Origin: Acidilutibacter cellobiosedens
GTDB taxonomy: Bacteria > Bacillota > Clostridia > Tissierellales > Acidilutibacteraceae
Assembly (NCBI RefSeq): GCF_004103715.1
Contig: NZ_CP035282.1
Span: 3,310,501-3,374,500 of the forward strand
Direction of reading: 5' to 3'
Length of the DNA: 64,000 bases
The position numbers were made by a program, and so were the translations under genes. Shown one piece after another: positions 49,257 to 59,057 of this stretch. The notes under the pieces were generated by a model. It ran no database searches. It was not told the DNA's origin and saw nothing but the letters and a program-made list of their open reading frames with translations. Positions within the stretch are counted from its first letter, which is position 1; the number at the start of each line of letters is the position of its first letter.

Positions 49257-49280
49257 AAGAGGCCTTCGGGCTTCTTTTTA
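49257..49280 (+). terminator. UUCG-loop terminator before TerL
   Basis: AAGAGGCC-TTCG-GGCTTCTT is an 8-bp stem with the very stable UUCG tetraloop, followed by TTTTA. It ends the accessory block directly upstream of the large terminase. Confidence 0.8.
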
Positions 49281-49303
49281 CTTATAGAAAGGAGGCGGCA
49301 CTA

Positions 49304-50905
49304 ATTAGAAAACTGAAAGATTATAAACCTACTAAATTTATGGCCAAGGATTCAGTCTATGATGAAGATGCCGCTGATTATGCTGTTTCATTTATTCAAG
49401 CACTTACTCATACTAAAGGTAGATGGGCAGGAAAGCCCTTTGAATTAATAGACTGGCAAGAACAAATTATAAGGGATATTTTTGGAACTATAAAACCTAA
49501 TGGATATCGCCAATTTAATACAGCCTATGTTGAAATTCCAAAGAAAATGGGAAAATCTGAATTAGCTGCAGCTATTGCTCTCCTTCTTACCTGTGGAGAT
49601 GGCGAGCAACGGGCTGAGGTTTATGGCTGTGCTGCTGATAGAAATCAAGCTTCTATTGTTTTCAATGTTGCAGCTGATATGGTAAGAATGTGTCCTCCTC
49701 TAGCCAAAAGAGTCAAGATTTTAGATTCTATGAAAAGATTAATCTATCAGCCTACAGGAAGTGTATATCAAGTCCTCTCTGCTGATGTTAAAAATAAACA
49801 CGGATTTAATACACATGGTGTTGTATTTGATGAACTTCACACTCAACCAAATAGAAAACTTTACGATGTTATGACCAAAGGAAGTGGTGATGCTAGAACC
49901 CAACCTCTTTATTTTTTAATAACTACTGCTGGGGATAATCAAAATAGTATCTGCTGGGAAGTCCATCAAAAAGCTGTAGATTTACTTGAAGGTAGAAAAA
50001 CTGACCCGACCTTCTACCCTGTTATTTATGGTGCTAATATGGATGATGATTGGACAGACCCTAATGTTTGGAAAAAAGCTAATCCTTCCCTTGGAATAAC
50101 TGTTACTATGGATAAGGTTAAAGCTGCCTTCGAGTCTGCAAGGCAAAACCCTGCAGAAGAAAACAGCTTCAGACAGTTACGATTAAACCAATGGGTAAAA
50201 CAGGCAATTAGATGGATGCCTATGGATAAGTGGGATGCCTGTGCTTTTAAAGTAGACCCAGAAGATTTAAAAGGTAGGGTTTGCTATGGTGGACTTGACC
50301 TTTCTTCTTCTACTGATATTACAGCCTTTGTTTTGGTCTTTCCACCTATTGATGAAGATGATAAATATAGCATCCTCCCCTACTTTTGGATACCAGAAGA
50401 AAATATTGACCTTAGAGTAAGACGAGATCATGTAAATTATGATTTATGGGAAAGGCAAGGTTTTATAAAAACTACTGAGGGTAATGTTGTTCATTATGGA
50501 TTTATAGAGAATTTTATTGAAGAATTAGGTATGGAATATAATATAAGAGAAATCGCCTTTGACCGCTGGGGAGCTATTCAAATGACACAGAACCTTGAGG
50601 GTATGGGTTTTACAGTAGTACCATTCGGTCAAGGTTTTAAAGATATGAGCCCTCCTACTAAAGAATTAATGAAACTTACTTTAGAAGAAAAACTAGCTCA
50701 TAGTGGCCATCCTGTCCTTCGCTGGATGATGGATAATATCTTTGTTAGAACTGATCCTGCTGGAAATATAAAGCCTGATAAAGAAAAGTCTAGTGAGAAA
50801 ATTGATGGTGCTGTTGCTACTATAATGGCTCTTGATAGGGCTTTAAGAAATGATGGCAATACTGGCAGCAGTGTTTATGATGATAGAGGGATACTCATTC
50901 TATAA
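49304..50905 (+). CDS. Terminase large subunit, apparent ATT start
   Basis: This protein of about 533 aa has an ATPase with PKKMGKSELAAA (about 79) and VVFDELHTQ (about 173), and a C-terminal nuclease with GGLDLSSSTDITAF (about 327). The first ATG in frame (49341 region) would lose RKLKDYKPTKF, the normal N-terminus of this family. The frame leads instead to ATT at 49304, placed 8 nt after AAAGGAGG, with no ATG, GTG or TTG available in frame. It packages DNA into proheads. Confidence 0.9.
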   Translation: MRKLKDYKPTKFMAKDSVYDEDAADYAVSFIQALTHTKGRWAGKPFELIDWQEQIIRDIFGTIKPNGYRQFNTAYVEIPKKMGKSELAAAIALLLTCGDGEQRAEVYGCAADRNQASIVFNVAADMVRMCPPLAKRVKILDSMKRLIYQPTGSVYQVLSADVKNKHGFNTHGVVFDELHTQPNRKLYDVMTKGSGDARTQPLYFLITTAGDNQNSICWEVHQKAVDLLEGRKTDPTFYPVIYGANMDDDWTDPNVWKKANPSLGITVTMDKVKAAFESARQNPAEENSFRQLRLNQWVKQAIRWMPMDKWDACAFKVDPEDLKGRVCYGGLDLSSSTDITAFVLVFPPIDEDDKYSILPYFWIPEENIDLRVRRDHVNYDLWERQGFIKTTEGNVVHYGFIENFIEELGMEYNIREIAFDRWGAIQMTQNLEGMGFTVVPFGQGFKDMSPPTKELMKLTLEEKLAHSGHPVLRWMMDNIFVRTDPAGNIKPDKEKSSEKIDGAVATIMALDRALRNDGNTGSSVYDDRGILIL

Positions 50906-50974
50906 TAATATAATATAGTTATGATATACTTTAATTAAATAAATGTCGATATTTAATTAAAGGGGGAGAGAACA

Positions 50975-52924
50975 ATTGACTGGGAAAAAATATATGATTA
51001 TTTGAAAAATGAAAAATACTACGGTACTGGTATTACAGGCCCTAAATACTTAAAACTATTGAAAGAGGTTAATGAGGATAACAGGATTTTATTTATTGAT
51101 TTTCACAAATATAATGTTTCTAACCTTCCTAAATACGATGATATATATAGTTTATATTATATTAATGCAAAAAATGATATAAAGGATGCAGAAACCAGTT
51201 TAACACCACTTAAAAGACATAATTTTAGCACCGATGAAGATTTTGAAAAATATATTGATAAATGTGTGCAAGGTAATTTAAAGTCTACTTTACAACAATA
51301 TAAAATAAGCCGAAATTATCTATTTCAATTTTTATTAGATAACGAAATTAATAGTACTAAATTAACTGAATTGAATCAGAAACAGATTGATAATTATATA
51401 TGTAGATTAGTTAATACTACAAGTGATAGAGTAATAGAAAGATATTTAAATAGTATAAATAACTTATTAGTATTTCATCAAGATAGCATGATGAATGAAA
51501 TTTCTTTAGACATAAATAAAATAATGAAAGATGTACCTATGTGGGAAGGTTTCCCCTGGACTATCGATGAAGCCACAAAAGAACATATTCAGTTTTATAA
51601 TTATTGGCTTAGTAATTATGGAAAAAATGTTTTTATTGAAGTAAACGGAGTTTTGAGTTATTTATTTTTTTATATATATACTATTATTGCCGATTTCATT
51701 AAAACCAAGGACATAACTAAATTAAATAATGAATTTGAAAAAATGTATAAAAATTACGGCCATTATGAATCTATAAGAGCATACTTATCTTCCTGGTGGA
51801 TGGATGCCTACTTGTGGGTAGGAGATGATAGAAAGTACTTAGAATACAAGATCAAAAACTTTTTAAGAACAGATAATACTCTAAATAGTTCGATTAGTCT
51901 TGATAAAATTATCGATGAAGTAAATACATCAAATGATATAGACTTAATAAATGAGTCATTCTTTCTAGTTATGAAAAATACAAAATCTCTCACAAATTAT
52001 GGATTAAATAATTTAGAGGGGATGATAGAATCTGCTAAAATGTATCTAACGGACTTTAAGGTAGAAAAAGGAATGTATATACGAGATTATTTTTATAATA
52101 AATTTGATATTTGGAACCTATCTGAAAAAGATTATAAGGAGTTAGAAGAATATATAGCCGGTGATAACTTTAAAGTATATCAAGATAAAAATTATAAAAC
52201 AAAATCAGAATGGTTCCATATACTAAAAGCGAACCATGAAAAAATTTCAAAATATAAAAGATCAGAGATTAAAGATTTAAATAAAATAATAAAGAATCCA
52301 GAGAAATACTCATATGAAAAAAGAAATTATTTTGATGATGATAAGAGTTATCGTGATTATCTTGAAGAACAAGTAGAATATGCAAAAGAAAAATTATTTT
52401 ATATGAAATACAGGAAGTCATATTTATTTGGTGGAGTACCAAAGGATTTTTTAAGTGATGATTGTTACATTATCAAAAAAGAAATTCCTCAAATTTTAGA
52501 AGAAGCTTTTATTGAAAAAGAGAGTAGAATTGCAAAAGAATGTGAAAACTTGTTAAGAGAAGAAAGAGGTATCCCAAAAATTGGGGAAGGTTGGATAAGT
52601 GAAACTATTTTATATAAACAAGTTATAGAAGCCTTCCCTGATGAAAAGGTAATCCATCATGGAAGACCACCTTGGTTAGGTAAACAGCATTTGGATATAT
52701 ATTTTCCAGAGAAAAATATTGGTATCGAATATCAAGGACAACAACATAACGAACCTATTGAATATTTTGGTGGAATAGAAGCTTTTAAGAAACAACAAAA
52801 AAGAGATAACAAGAAAAAAATGTTATGTGATAAGAATAATTGTAGCTTAATATACGTTTATCCTGATTATAATTTTGAAGATATCAAAAATGAGATTGAA
52901 ACTCTTCTATTATCTAATAATTAA
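50975..52924 (+). CDS. Accessory protein with C-terminal PD-(D/E)xK-like nuclease
   Basis: About 649 aa, placed between TerL and portal where phages normally have nothing. The N-terminal ~500 residues are helical and unrecognised. The C-terminal ~110 residues read GEGWISETILYKQVIEAFPD, LDIYFPEKNIGIEYQGQQHN, then a YFGG motif and RDNKKKMLCDKNNCSLIYVY, a PD-(D/E)xK-type nuclease core (D...E-x-Q/K). The coding frame begins at ATT 50975 (MDWEKIYDYL), 6 nt after GGGGGAG; TTG 51002 is a poorer start. It has its own terminator. Probably a moron, possibly a defence gene. Confidence 0.6.
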   Translation: MDWEKIYDYLKNEKYYGTGITGPKYLKLLKEVNEDNRILFIDFHKYNVSNLPKYDDIYSLYYINAKNDIKDAETSLTPLKRHNFSTDEDFEKYIDKCVQGNLKSTLQQYKISRNYLFQFLLDNEINSTKLTELNQKQIDNYICRLVNTTSDRVIERYLNSINNLLVFHQDSMMNEISLDINKIMKDVPMWEGFPWTIDEATKEHIQFYNYWLSNYGKNVFIEVNGVLSYLFFYIYTIIADFIKTKDITKLNNEFEKMYKNYGHYESIRAYLSSWWMDAYLWVGDDRKYLEYKIKNFLRTDNTLNSSISLDKIIDEVNTSNDIDLINESFFLVMKNTKSLTNYGLNNLEGMIESAKMYLTDFKVEKGMYIRDYFYNKFDIWNLSEKDYKELEEYIAGDNFKVYQDKNYKTKSEWFHILKANHEKISKYKRSEIKDLNKIIKNPEKYSYEKRNYFDDDKSYRDYLEEQVEYAKEKLFYMKYRKSYLFGGVPKDFLSDDCYIIKKEIPQILEEAFIEKESRIAKECENLLREERGIPKIGEGWISETILYKQVIEAFPDEKVIHHGRPPWLGKQHLDIYFPEKNIGIEYQGQQHNEPIEYFGGIEAFKKQQKRDNKKKMLCDKNNCSLIYVYPDYNFEDIKNEIETLLLSNN

Positions 52925-53021
52925 AGTTGACATAACCCTCGTGCAATGTGAACTGAAGGAACACTGGAAATTATAAAACGTTAAATGTTAATGCTTTTAT
53001 ATACACAAAATAGATATTTTT

Positions 53022-53050
53022 AAGCACCCTCACCTTGAAGGTGCTTTTTC
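53022..53050 (+). terminator. Terminator after accessory nuclease gene
   Basis: AAGCACC (53022-53028) and GGTGCTT (53040-53046), followed by TTTC, form a terminator that insulates the accessory gene from the portal gene. The rest of 52925-53075 shows nothing else. Confidence 0.75.
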
Positions 53051-53075
53051 ATGCTCATTTTAAGGAGGTGATTGT

Positions 53076-54323
53076 ATTAGCATTTTTTCAAGAGTATTTA
53101 AAAGGGAAGCTAGGCCAAAAAACTCCTTCTTTGGTTCTACCTATAGCTTCTTCTTTGGTTCAACTCCCAGTGGAAAAACAGTAAACGAAAGAACAGCTAT
53201 GCAAACAACAGCAGTTTATGCCTGTGTTAGGATACTGGCTGAAACCATAGCCTCCCTCCCACTACACACCTATATTAATACTGAAAATGGAAAGGAAAAA
53301 GCAATGGATCATCCACTCTATCCCCTGCTATCTTCTTCTCCTAATCCTGAGATGACTTCATTTGTGTTTAGAGAAACACTCATGGGTCATCTTTTATTAT
53401 GGGGAAATTCCTATTCACAAATAATTAGAGATGGTAGAGGAAAAATCATAGCTATCTATCCCCTGCTTCCAGATAAAATGACTGTAAGTAGAAGTGAAAA
53501 AGGGGAAATCTACTATGTATATAACAAAGAAGGCCATGACTATATTTTGAGAAAAGAAGAAGTCCTTCACATTCCAGGACTAGGCTTTGATGGCCTTATT
53601 GGCTACTCACCAATTGCTATGGCTAAGAATGCAATAGGAATGGCAATAGCTACTGAAGAATATGGTGCTAAGTTCTTTGCTAACGGAGCAAATCCAGGTG
53701 GAGTGCTAGAGCATCCTGGAATTGTAAAAGACCCACAGAGGATTAGGGATAGTTGGAACTCTGTATATCAAGGAACATCCAATGCCCATAGAGTCGCAGT
53801 TTTAGAAGAAGGTATGAAGTTCTCCCCTATTGGTATTCCACCAGAGCAAGCACAGTTTTTAGAAACAAGAAAATACCAAACAGAAGAAATATGTAGGATA
53901 TTTAGAGTCCCCCCTCACTTGGTTGGTGATTTAGAAAGGGCTACATTTTCAAATATTGAACATCAATCTATAAGCTTTGTAGTTCATACAATTAGACCTT
54001 GGCTGGTTAGAATTGAGCAATCTATTAATAAGTCTTTATTTACAGATAAAGAAAAACAGAAATACTTTGTAAGCTTTGTAGTTGAGGGTCTTCTACGTGG
54101 AGATTATGAATCAAGAATGAGGGGTTATTCTATAGGAATACAGAATGGTTTCATGTCTCCAAATGATATTAGAAGATTAGAAAACTTGAATCCTATCCCT
54201 TCTGAAGAAGGCGGAAACACATATATGGTTAATGGTAATATGCTTAAACTTAAAGATGTCGGTGCATTTGTAAAAGAAAATACTGGAGGTGATGAAAATA
54301 AAGAAGTTTTGGAACTGGATTAA
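53076..54323 (+). CDS. HK97-family portal protein, apparent ATT start
   Basis: This protein of about 415 aa has portal hallmarks: TAVYACVRILAETIASLPLH, LLLWGNSYSQIIRDG, and YQTEEICRIFRVPPHLVGDL. The N-terminus SIFSRVFKREARP is typical but the frame has no ATG, GTG or TTG there; it opens at ATT 53076, 7 nt after AAGGAGG. Portals form the dodecameric DNA gate of the head. A later ATG (53199) would remove a conserved 41-residue section. Confidence 0.9.
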   Translation: MSIFSRVFKREARPKNSFFGSTYSFFFGSTPSGKTVNERTAMQTTAVYACVRILAETIASLPLHTYINTENGKEKAMDHPLYPLLSSSPNPEMTSFVFRETLMGHLLLWGNSYSQIIRDGRGKIIAIYPLLPDKMTVSRSEKGEIYYVYNKEGHDYILRKEEVLHIPGLGFDGLIGYSPIAMAKNAIGMAIATEEYGAKFFANGANPGGVLEHPGIVKDPQRIRDSWNSVYQGTSNAHRVAVLEEGMKFSPIGIPPEQAQFLETRKYQTEEICRIFRVPPHLVGDLERATFSNIEHQSISFVVHTIRPWLVRIEQSINKSLFTDKEKQKYFVSFVVEGLLRGDYESRMRGYSIGIQNGFMSPNDIRRLENLNPIPSEEGGNTYMVNGNMLKLKDVGAFVKENTGGDENKEVLELD

Positions 54324-54993
54324 AAATGAAGAAGGAGAAAGAACCCTATATTTCGATGGATATATTGCACAAGATAGTTGGTTTGATGATGATATAACTC
54401 CTAAAAAATTTAAAGCTGAATTAATGGAATCAGATGGAGACATTTCAGTATGGATTAACTCCCCAGGTGGCGATGTGTTTGCTGCCAGCCAAATCTACAA
54501 TATGCTAAAAGAATACAAGGGAAAAGTTACTGTAAAGATTGATGGTTTAGCTGCCTCTGCTGCTTCAGTTATTGCCATGGCAGGAGATGAAATTTTAATG
54601 TCCCCTGTCGCCATGCTTATGATTCATAACCCCTCTACCCTTATTTGGGGCGAAGAAACAGATATGGTAAAGGCTAAAGAAATGCTATCTGAGGTTAAGG
54701 AAAGTATTATAAATGCCTATGAAGTAAAAACAAATCTACCAAGAAATAAGATCTCTAAAATGATGGATAATGAAACCTGGATGAGTTCAAATAAAGCTGT
54801 TGAACTTGGCTTTGCAGATAAGGTTTTATATGAAGAATACCCTTCTAATAATCTAATAGAAGATGGTTTTATCTTCGATAAAGTAACGGTAATAAACACA
54901 CTAATTAATAAGTTTCCTAAAAAGGAAGATCCACCAATTAGTAATGGTACTTCTTATGAAGAATTAAGTAAAAGATTAAATCTAATAAAATAA
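54292..54993 (+). CDS. ClpP-like prohead protease
   Basis: This 233-aa protein is a phage ClpP-type maturation protease: INSPGGDVFAASQIYNML, then GLAASAASVIAMAGDEILMS with the nucleophilic serine, and MLMIHNPST with the histidine. It trims the capsid protein during head maturation. ATG 54292 is only 2 nt from GGAGG; an ATA two codons on (54298) has ideal spacing and matches the usual KKFWNW start, so the true start is uncertain. It overlaps the portal end by 32 bp. Confidence 0.9.
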   Translation: MKIKKFWNWIKNEEGERTLYFDGYIAQDSWFDDDITPKKFKAELMESDGDISVWINSPGGDVFAASQIYNMLKEYKGKVTVKIDGLAASAASVIAMAGDEILMSPVAMLMIHNPSTLIWGEETDMVKAKEMLSEVKESIINAYEVKTNLPRNKISKMMDNETWMSSNKAVELGFADKVLYEEYPSNNLIEDGFIFDKVTVINTLINKFPKKEDPPISNGTSYEELSKRLNLIK

Positions 54994-55007: not shown

Positions 55008-56204
55008 TTGAATAAAATAATAGAACTAAGAGAAAAAAGAGCGAAGCTTTGGGAATCTACCAAGGCTTTTTTAGATTCAAGAAGAAATGAAAATGGCCTT
55101 CTTTCAGCTGAAGATACAGCTACCTATGAAAGAATGGAACAAGATGTGGTAGATTTAGGTAAGGAAATAGAAAGACTTGAAAGACAAGCGGTACTTGATT
55201 TAGAACTTTCAAAGCCTACCTCTTCCCCACTCTTCAACACCCCTAATAACAATATTGGAGAAGAAAAGAAAGGCCGAGCTTCTGATGAGTATAAAAAAGC
55301 TTTCTGGAACACCATGAGAAATAACCCTACACCTGAGATAAGAAATTCTCTTAAAATTGGAACAGATAGCGAAGGTGGATATTTAGTACCAGATGAATTT
55401 GAAAAAACTTTAGTTGAAGGCTTATTAGAAGAAAATATATTTAGGACACTAGCTACAATAATTAACACATCCTCAGGAGATAGGAAAATTCCAGTAGTAG
55501 CTTCAAAAGGTAATGCATCGTGGGTAGATGAAGAAGCACCAATTCCAGAGTCTGACGATAGTTTTGGACAAATTTCAATAGGTGCTTTTAAATTAGCAAC
55601 AATAATTAAAATATCAGAAGAACTTCTAAATGACAGTGTATTTAATTTAGAATCATACATTGCTAAAGAGTTCGCTAGAAGGATTGGTTCAGCTGAAGAA
55701 GAAGCATTTTTAATTGGAAATGGAACAGGTAGACCTACTGGAATATTCAATAATACAGGTGGTGCAGGTGTAGGAACAACAGCATCCACTCAATCAACCA
55801 TTAAAATTGATGAGATAATAGATTTATTCTATTCCTTAAAATCTCCATATAGGAAAAAAGCTACTTTTATAATGAATGATTCTACTGTGAAGGAAATTAG
55901 AAAGCTTAAAGATGGAAATGGTCAATATATCTGGCAACCTTCTATCACTGCAGGCGAACCAGATACAATTCTTAATAGACCAGTTAAAACTTCCTCTTAT
56001 GTTCCTGGTTTAGCAGCAGGTGCAAAGCCTATAGCTTTTGGAGACTTTTCATATTACTGGATAGCTGATAGACAAGGCAGATCTTTCCAAAGACTTAATG
56101 AGCTTTATGCTGTAACAGGACAAATTGGATTTAAAGCAAGCCAGAGAGTTGATGGAAAGTTAATCCTTCCTGAAGCTATAAAAGTATTACAAATGAAAGC
56201 CTAG
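55008..56204 (+). CDS. HK97-type major capsid protein
   Basis: This 398-aa protein starts at TTG 55008, 8 nt after GGAGG. An N-terminal coiled coil (about 1-65, delta/scaffold domain, removed by the protease) precedes the HK97 fold, with GGYLVPDEFEKTLVEGLLEE, SSGDRKIPVVASKG, ISEELLNDSVFNLESYIAKE and a C-terminal FSYYWIADRQG. It forms the capsid shell. Confidence 0.93.
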   Translation: MNKIIELREKRAKLWESTKAFLDSRRNENGLLSAEDTATYERMEQDVVDLGKEIERLERQAVLDLELSKPTSSPLFNTPNNNIGEEKKGRASDEYKKAFWNTMRNNPTPEIRNSLKIGTDSEGGYLVPDEFEKTLVEGLLEENIFRTLATIINTSSGDRKIPVVASKGNASWVDEEAPIPESDDSFGQISIGAFKLATIIKISEELLNDSVFNLESYIAKEFARRIGSAEEEAFLIGNGTGRPTGIFNNTGGAGVGTTASTQSTIKIDEIIDLFYSLKSPYRKKATFIMNDSTVKEIRKLKDGNGQYIWQPSITAGEPDTILNRPVKTSSYVPGLAAGAKPIAFGDFSYYWIADRQGRSFQRLNELYAVTGQIGFKASQRVDGKLILPEAIKVLQMKA

Positions 56205-58590: not shown

Positions 58591-58905
58591 ATGGAGATTA
58601 AACTTTTAATAAACGATAAAGAAAAAACCTTTGTTTCTAATTTTATCTCAGCTCGAATGCTAAGAAGAACTCTTGAAATATCAAAGAAAGTAAATTTTAA
58701 TGATATGTCCCCTGAAGAATTAGACACTATGGTTGATTTTATTGTAGAAATATTTAAGGGTCAATTTACTCGTGATGATGTATATGATGGCGTAGCCTCT
58801 AAAGAATTAATACCTACAATAACAAAATGTATAAATGAAATTGTAGGTGAAGTAGCTGTTGCTACTGGGGTAGATGAAAAAAACGAAGTAAGGGAAATTC
58901 AGTAG
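58591..58905 (+). CDS. Tail assembly chaperone gpG-like
   Basis: This 104-aa protein (ISARMLRRTLEISKKVNFND, then ELDTMVDFIVEIFKGQFTRD) is the short form of the tail chaperone that accompanies tape-measure genes. A slippery heptamer, A-AAA-AAC, in frame at 58878-58884 near its end, allows a -1 shift into the downstream frame. It is needed for tail assembly but absent from the virion in known phages. Confidence 0.85.
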   Translation: MEIKLLINDKEKTFVSNFISARMLRRTLEISKKVNFNDMSPEELDTMVDFIVEIFKGQFTRDDVYDGVASKELIPTITKCINEIVGEVAVATGVDEKNEVREIQ

Positions 58906-59057
58906 ACCCAGAAGAATTTATCGACAGTATCTACATTTCCCTTCTTGAGAATAATTGGACACTTAATGATATAGATTCCATGGATATAATTTATTATTTA
59001 AAGCTACTAGATAAGAAAGTTCAAAAAGAAAGAAAATATATAGATGATATTTTATAA
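58591..59057 (+). CDS. Frameshifted tail chaperone gpGT-like
   Basis: Slippage by -1 on AAAAAAC (58878-58884) would join 98 residues of the short form to 57 residues read in the overlapping frame (after the shift: VDPEEFIDSIYISLLENNWT, then YYLKLLDKKVQKERKYIDDI), ending at 59057. The product has about 155 aa. The extension has no start codon of its own and is predicted helical, as in lambda gpGT. It links the tail tube and tape measure during assembly. Confidence 0.8.

What the first reader, a model, noticed from the sequence alone, without database searches (positions are those of the whole stretch)
49304..53078. Three late genes apparently initiate at ATT
TerL (49304), the accessory nuclease (50975) and the portal (53076) each have family-like or coding N-termini that extend upstream of any ATG, GTG or TTG to an ATT placed 6-8 nt after a strong ribosome site. 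AUU is known as a start only in rare cases such as infC, where it lowers and autoregulates translation. Three in one late block (with an ATA possible for the protease) suggests deliberate dosage control of packaging proteins.
Basis: partly seen in the sequence, partly recalled or inferred. Interest (0 to 1): 0.8.

Follow-up and report, generated by a model that had tools for sequence, protein, structure and literature searches.

The report
Conserved non-AUG starts in phage packaging genes
In this prophage, and in many related phages of Firmicutes, the gene for the DNA-packaging motor begins at a codon that bacteria rarely use as a start, next to a very strong ribosome-binding site, which probably keeps this low-copy protein scarce.

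Summary
ATT stands at 49304 (TerL) and 53076 (portal), 8 and 7 nt after strong Shine-Dalgarno (SD) sites, with no ATG/GTG/TTG in frame from the upstream stop to residue 13 and 42. The protease may use ATA (54298), but an ATG two codons earlier leaves this open. The nuclease ATT (50975) has a weaker SD and no N-terminal relatives: undetermined.

Of 243 distinct TerL relatives, 115 have a near-cognate start (ATC, ATA, ATT, CTG, ACG) with an SD, against 14 of 302 portals (at least three doubtful) and 0 of 211 capsids. Codons 2-12 evolve like the rest of the gene (90% of single-base differences synonymous), upstream codons do not (10-12%), and the next canonical codon lacks an SD. Sequencing error, prophage decay and downstream starts are unlikely.

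Best reading: a weak start under an extended SD throttles low-copy packaging proteins, as for infC, cvfC1 and ccpN. Drift under a strong SD is a live rival. Neither dosage nor IF3 sensitivity was measured. Ten full-text searches of an open-access library listed no such report for phage packaging genes. Two GenBank phages annotate such a TerL 12 residues short.

The parts
49257..49279 (+). terminator-like hairpin with UUCG loop and T tract, just upstream of the TerL SD
   Evidence: the region as a whole has no more terminator-like sites than shuffles (6 against a mean of 6.4)
49286..49295 (+). extended Shine-Dalgarno sequence AGAAAGGAGG of TerL
49304..49306 (+). ATT start codon of TerL
   Evidence: SD 10-nt match at 8 nt; ATT also in close relatives; near-cognate in 115 of 243 distinct relatives
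49304..50905 (+). terminase large subunit (TerL), 533 aa when read from the ATT
   Evidence: PF03354 E 5.9e-23 and PF20441 E 1.2e-49; PDB 6z6d E 1.3e-69
50959..50968 (+). purine-rich AAAGGGGGAG, possible SD of the nuclease
   Evidence: only a 5-nt match
50975..50977 (+). ATT, possible start codon of the nuclease; undetermined
   Evidence: N-terminus has no relatives to compare; alternative TTG at 51002
50975..52924 (+). accessory protein whose C-terminal part resembles phage homing endonucleases, in the TerL-portal gap
53022..53049 (+). terminator-like hairpin with T tract, upstream of the portal SD
53062..53072 (+). extended Shine-Dalgarno sequence AAGGAGGTGAT of the portal gene
53076..53078 (+). 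ATT start codon of the portal gene
   Evidence: SD 11-nt match at 7 nt; ATT, ATA or ATC in the nine close relatives compared, window included
53076..54323 (+). portal protein, 415 aa when read from the ATT
   Evidence: PF04860 E 1.8e-127
54285..54293 (+). Shine-Dalgarno sequence GGAGGTGAT of the protease; overlaps an in-frame ATG at 54292
54298..54300 (+). ATA, probable start codon of the protease
   Evidence: 9-nt SD match at 8 nt; ATA in close relatives, two of which (L165, L005) lack the ATG but have a GTG overlapping the SD
54298..54993 (+). ClpP-like head maturation protease
55008..56204 (+). major capsid protein, canonical (TTG) start; contrast gene
   Evidence: PF05065 E 1.7e-89; 208 of 211 distinct relatives called canonical, 0 near-cognate, 3 neither

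Best explanation
TerL and portal of this prophage (and probably the protease) are translated from AUU/AUA, chosen by an extended Shine-Dalgarno helix 7-8 nt upstream; for TerL and portal this is supported by comparison. Because the initiator tRNA then pairs with only two of three codon bases, initiation should be slow and sensitive to IF3 although ribosome binding is strong, so yield is a fraction of what AUG would give (inferred from infC, ccpN, cvfC1 and sigR). The phage thereby keeps low-copy packaging proteins, above all the TerL nuclease-ATPase, scarce relative to the capsid protein encoded just downstream (inferred from the gradient of start codons across genes).
For: Coding constraint begins at the near-cognate codon: 90% of single-base codon differences are synonymous in codons 2-12, 89% in codons 30-60, 10-12% upstream, 14% and 2% in the other frames (97 loci). 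In these 97 the first canonical codon downstream within 49 codons has an SD match of only 2-4 nt in all 85 that have one, and no out-of-frame canonical codon lies 4-12 nt after the SD in any. Near-cognate starts: TerL 115 of 243, portal 14 of 302, capsid 0 of 211; 45 of 119 loci pair a near-cognate TerL with an ATG capsid, none the reverse. Clustered at 90% identity, 22 of 70 called TerL clusters. S. aureus AUU/AUA sites with extended SD give about 10%, up to 30%, of AUG (PMC13009471, passages); clostridia initiate at an engineered AUU (PMC11040787, passages); IF3 represses the GTC start of sigR (PMC5472188, passages).
Against: No expression data. The near-cognate state is labile: at least 30 changes on the TerL tree, and changes among ATA/ATC/ATT (about 15) do not clearly exceed changes between these and ATG (about 11). 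The stronger SD of near-cognate starts is significant pooled but not on independent pairs (median p 0.51). The window's own count is not significant against the host (p 0.11). ATG capsids may simply reflect selection for high yield of capsid, not for low yield of TerL.
Confidence: 0.58

Rival explanations
1. Tolerance, not tuning: the SD is so strong and TerL is needed in so few copies that start codon identity is nearly neutral and drifts among all codons with some activity.
For: Eight codons are used in TerL, nearly the whole set with known activity; labile on the tree; SD strength does not follow the codon on independent pairs.
Against: Portals, which share the extended SD and often the leader hairpin, are mostly ATG (246 of 302); the state is still inherited (30 changes against a shuffled mean of 80).
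Confidence: 0.3
2. A regulated switch rather than a fixed setting: the near-cognate start makes late packaging genes respond to IF3 or growth state, like infC or ccpN.
For: The host's infC seems to have the same layout: hairpin with T tract, strong SD, ATA; ccpN AUA rises from about 10% to 30% of AUG in rich medium (PMC13009471, passages).
Against: Nothing tested here speaks for a response; cvfC1 AUU showed no medium effect in the same paper. The only infC match of the genome is outside the window.
Confidence: 0.15
3. The real starts are canonical codons downstream (TerL residue 13, portal residue 42), as some GenBank records have it for TerL.
For: phi1605, Javan630 and NatCom_3357 are annotated from residue 13; residue 13 is Met in 67 of 97 near-cognate loci.
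Against: No SD there (2-4 nt match); residues 2-12 are under coding constraint; 28 of 97 loci have no canonical codon before residue 23.
Confidence: 0.03
4. Sequencing error or a decayed prophage.
For: None found.
Against: The same kind of start recurs in many separate viral and genome contigs with coding constraint downstream.
Confidence: 0.01

Closest known systems
infC, cvfC1 (AUU), ccpN (AUA) and citZ (AUA) start sites of Staphylococcus aureus (PMC13009471, passages read)
   Same: AUU or AUA start; for infC, cvfC1 and ccpN an extended SD; conserved among relatives for cvfC1 and ccpN
   Different: cellular genes with measured initiation (ribosome peaks, luciferase); here phage genes, comparative evidence only
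infC of Escherichia coli and other bacteria (described in PMC5472188, passages read)
   Same: near-cognate start; the host of this prophage seems to have ATA at infC after a strong SD and a hairpin
   Different: autoregulation by its own product IF3; TerL and portal are not initiation factors
sigR of Streptomyces, GTC start (PMC5472188, passages read)
   Same: non-canonical start used to keep one protein scarce relative to its partner; misannotated to a canonical codon in genomes
   Different: IF3 control shown by experiment; GTC, single cellular gene
Borrelia burgdorferi PncA (BBE22), AUU start (PMC13398362, passages read)
   Same: databases list a truncated protein because the AUU start is overlooked
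   Different: confirmed by crystal structure; plasmid-borne enzyme gene
TerL of phage HK97 (PDB 6z6d)
   Same: homologous TerL, query residues 27-513 aligned, E 1.3e-69
   Different: its N-terminal residues do not align and its start codon was not examined

Membership tests
genes with near-cognate start and extended SD (infC, cvfC1, ccpN type) | start codon is neither AUG, GUG nor UUG and no such codon is available in frame nearby | tested here: met
   TerL and portal. Protease: ATG and GTG in frame just upstream, so inconclusive there. Nuclease: next canonical codon at residue 10.
genes with near-cognate start and extended SD (infC, cvfC1, ccpN type) | strong, extended SD at proper distance | tested here: met
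   TerL 10 nt at 8 nt, portal 11 nt at 7 nt, protease 9 nt at 8 nt; nuclease only 5 nt
genes with near-cognate start and extended SD (infC, cvfC1, ccpN type) | coding constraint begins at that codon and the usage is conserved | tested here: met
   TerL 97 loci; portal nine close relatives, 294 synonymous to 110 other differences in codons 2-30 and 10 to 48 upstream
genes with near-cognate start and extended SD (infC, cvfC1, ccpN type) | initiation is measurably lower than from AUG | not testable with these tools
   needs reporter fusions
genes with near-cognate start and extended SD (infC, cvfC1, ccpN type) | repression by IF3 | not testable with these tools
   needs IF3 level or fidelity mutants
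terminase large subunit (PF03354, PF20441) | ATPase and nuclease domains above Pfam's cut-offs | tested here: met
   81.9 and 169.5 bits against cut-offs 23.7 and 24
phage portal protein (PF04860) | portal domain above Pfam's cut-off | tested here: met
   425.4 bits against 39.1

The most novel reading that the evidence does not exclude
A wide lineage of Firmicutes phages uses the infC recipe (leader hairpin, extended SD, AUH start) as an IF3-gated valve: TerL, and in this prophage's own lineage portal and protease, are translated well only when the IF3 to 30S ratio or growth state changes late in infection, so that packaging enzymes lag behind capsid assembly and leak little in lysogens.
Probability: 0.12. 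Interest if true: 0.85.

Novelty: new variant of a known kind. Interest (0 to 1): 0.6.

Why it matters
The near-cognate starts described in the papers seen here are single cellular genes. Here phages use them again and again in one essential gene, in hosts of several Firmicutes genera, while the capsid gene just downstream keeps canonical starts. That is a natural experiment on what sets start codon strength (dosage, drift or IF3 control). It also shows that some annotations cut 12 conserved residues off a common phage marker protein, and it suggests that translation tuning may help set head assembly stoichiometry.

Tried and rejected
Leader hairpin as the cause: it is about as frequent before canonical TerL starts (95 of 126) as before near-cognate ones (96 of 115), and a simple scan finds no excess of terminator-like sites in the window region (6 against a shuffled mean of 6.4). 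Extended codon-anticodon pairing (T at -1): 65 of 97 near-cognate against 41 of 77 canonical, p 0.085: not taken as evidence. SD compensation: strong pooled (-17.1 against -14.4 kcal/mol, p 1.6e-11, 205 rows) but not on independent pairs. First host scan too noisy, refined. Nuclease relatives: no confirmed one in viral contigs, C-terminal part only in phages, plasmids and 19 other genomes of 398 searched. AlphaFold model of TerL: mean pLDDT 47.7, uninformative. Rfam: no match in the window. tRNA genes: none in the window.

Caveats of the counts. Each scan keeps the best 80 loci; four of the five viral scans that found something used TerL queries. 105 of 446 TerL loci were dropped because the N-terminus did not align or was cut, 98 as duplicates, so 115 of 243 describes this TerL clade, not phages at large. 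The caller looks from at most 12 codons upstream to residue 11 and lets any canonical codon with an SD match of 4 nt win, which makes TerL counts conservative; conversely at least 3 of the 14 portal calls (L170, L012, L026) have an ATG two codons before the aligned residue, and a CTG group of 9 TerL rows has an SD match of only 5 nt. Protease relatives: 9 of 256 distinct called near-cognate, five of them doubtful, 20 not called; the same caller counts the window's own protease as canonical because of its ATG.

Papers. Ten searches listed no report of near-cognate starts in phage terminase or portal genes. Several lists were capped (20 of 1,383, 40 of 136 and 20 of 550), most papers were seen only as listings, and the library lacks most subscription journals. 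Passages were read in five papers; PMC13072308 only mentions in its methods that non-canonical start codons are prevalent in phage genomes. Virion copy numbers of TerL, portal and capsid are recalled.

Full report
What is there. The window lies in a 3.74 Mb single-contig genome and holds a prophage late region: TerL, an accessory nuclease, portal, ClpP-like protease, capsid. ATT stands at 49304, 50975 and 53076 as reported. Upstream of the TerL ATT the frame holds 15 codons, and of the portal ATT 4, none of them ATG, GTG or TTG, before a stop; SD matches are 10 and 11 nt long at 8 and 7 nt. For the nuclease the match is 5 nt, and the alternative TTG at residue 10 has one of 4 nt. The protease has an ATA 8 nt after GGAGGTGAT, and an ATG that overlaps this SD.

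Is it more than chance? Counting alone is modest evidence: 3 of 55 window frames against 5 of 308 in a host sample, Fisher p 0.11, although the three are head and packaging genes in a row, with only the nuclease between. Comparison settles it for TerL and portal. Relatives came from viral contigs and genome contigs and from ten annotated phages. The TerL start is ATC, ATA, ATT, CTG or ACG with an SD in 115 of 243 distinct loci (446 with a hit; 105 dropped because the N-terminus did not align or was cut, 98 duplicates), ATG in 56, TTG in 50, GTG in 20, not called in 2. In 84 of the 115 the scanned frame holds no canonical codon at all. Clustered at 90% identity, 22 of 70 called clusters are near-cognate. 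Among genome contigs, 10 of 28 called loci are near-cognate, in records titled Haloimpatiens, Clostridium, Syntrophomonas, Pelotomaculum, Thermoclostridium, Mobilitalea and others.

The main proof is the boundary of coding constraint. In the 97 loci with the near-cognate codon at residue 1, single-base codon differences are synonymous in 90% for codons 2-12, 89% for codons 30-60, 12% for codons -12 to -5 and 10% for codons -4 to -1; the other frames give 14% and 2%. R2, K3, L4, K5, Y7, P9 and T10 are each kept in at least 93 of 97 rows. In 58 of 97 a stop is met upstream before any canonical codon. The first downstream canonical codon is residue 13 in 66, residue 4 in 3, residues 23 to 48 in 16, and absent within 49 codons in 12; its SD match is 2-4 nt in all 85. 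No out-of-frame canonical codon lies 4-12 nt after the SD in any of the 97. At the portal, nine close relatives, window included, read ATT, ATA or ATC, with 294 synonymous to 110 other differences in codons 2-30 and 10 to 48 upstream.

The protease ATA is found in L162, L163, L164, L166 and L002, together with the ATG; L165 and L005 keep the ATA without the ATG, but have a GTG that overlaps the SD; L003 and L004 have CTG in its place. ATA is the likelier start but not certain. The nuclease start cannot be tested: no collection searched gave a relative of its N-terminal part; the C-terminal part resembles phage homing endonucleases.

How it probably works. The gradient among genes is the main clue. 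Near-cognate plus GTG/TTG starts make up 185 of 241 called TerLs, 52 of 298 called portals and 8 of 208 called capsids. In 119 loci with both genes, 45 combine a near-cognate TerL with an ATG capsid and none has a near-cognate capsid. This follows copies per virion (about five, twelve and several hundred; recalled) and fits weak starts as a dosage setting. AUU and AUA sites of S. aureus give about 10%, up to 30%, of AUG (PMC13009471, passages); IF3 represses the GTC start of sigR (PMC5472188, passages); clostridia initiate at an engineered AUU (PMC11040787, passages). The host's infC seems to begin with ATA after a strong SD and a hairpin with T tract (the start is placed by resemblance, recalled). 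No tRNA gene is in the window and the only infC match of the genome is outside it, so the ordinary initiator tRNA and host IF3 are the likely players. That expression is low, and that low expression is selected, is inferred.

Results against tuning. On a TerL tree built from residue 14 on, the near-cognate state changes at least 30 times, against a shuffled mean of 80: inherited, but labile. Changes among ATA/ATC/ATT (about 15) do not clearly outnumber those between these and ATG (about 11). SD energies are stronger at near-cognate starts when pooled (p 1.6e-11) but not on independent pairs (median p 0.51). Drift under a strong SD therefore stays a live rival, at 0.3.

Surroundings. A hairpin followed by a T tract lies 8-85 nt upstream of 192 of 243 TerL and 167 of 302 portal starts, against 19 of 211 capsids; shuffles give 25, 13 and 3. 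In the window region itself, terminator-like sites are no more frequent than in shuffles, but two of the six are these two hairpins. The TerL-portal gap carries cargo in relatives: an annotated aminoglycoside nucleotidyltransferase in phi1605, a MerR regulator in Javan105, other genes in Javan422. Of nine annotated phages whose TerL start could be called, two have ATC, phi1605 and Javan630, and both annotate TerL from codon 13; NatCom_3357 does so although its residue 1 is GTG.

Standing. The claim is strong for TerL and portal, fair for the protease, open for the nuclease. By mechanism it belongs with infC, ccpN, cvfC1 and sigR. What looks new, within ten capped searches of an open-access library, is its recurrence in one essential phage gene across hosts and its absence from the capsid gene.

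Noticed in passing
49257-49279 and 53022-53049; TerL and portal leaders of related loci: A hairpin with T tract sits just upstream of the SD of TerL (192 of 243) and portal (167 of 302) but rarely of the capsid (19 of 211). If these are terminators, late transcription must pass them.
   Followed up: partly
50906-53075 (TerL-portal gap); L244, L249, L253: The gap between TerL and portal is a cargo slot: an endonuclease-like gene here, an annotated aminoglycoside nucleotidyltransferase in phi1605, MerR in Javan105, other genes in Javan422.
   Followed up: partly
L242 (host infC, G000:C1:1470711-1471211): The host's infC seems to start at ATA after a strong SD, preceded by a hairpin with T tract: the same layout as the phage TerL and portal leaders.
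   Followed up: partly
L244, L245, L246: GenBank annotation of TerL begins at codon 13 in phi1605, NatCom_3357 and Javan630, losing 12 residues that are conserved in relatives.
   Followed up: yes
L226, L108, L115, L136, upstream of TerL: A stretch CTCGTACAGATAG lies before the TerL hairpin in 4 of the 15 TerL leaders printed; meaning unknown.
   Followed up: no
58591-59056: A 104-aa ORF before the tape measure gene is followed at once by a short unlisted open stretch, the usual place of a tail-chaperone frameshift (recalled); not examined.
   Followed up: no
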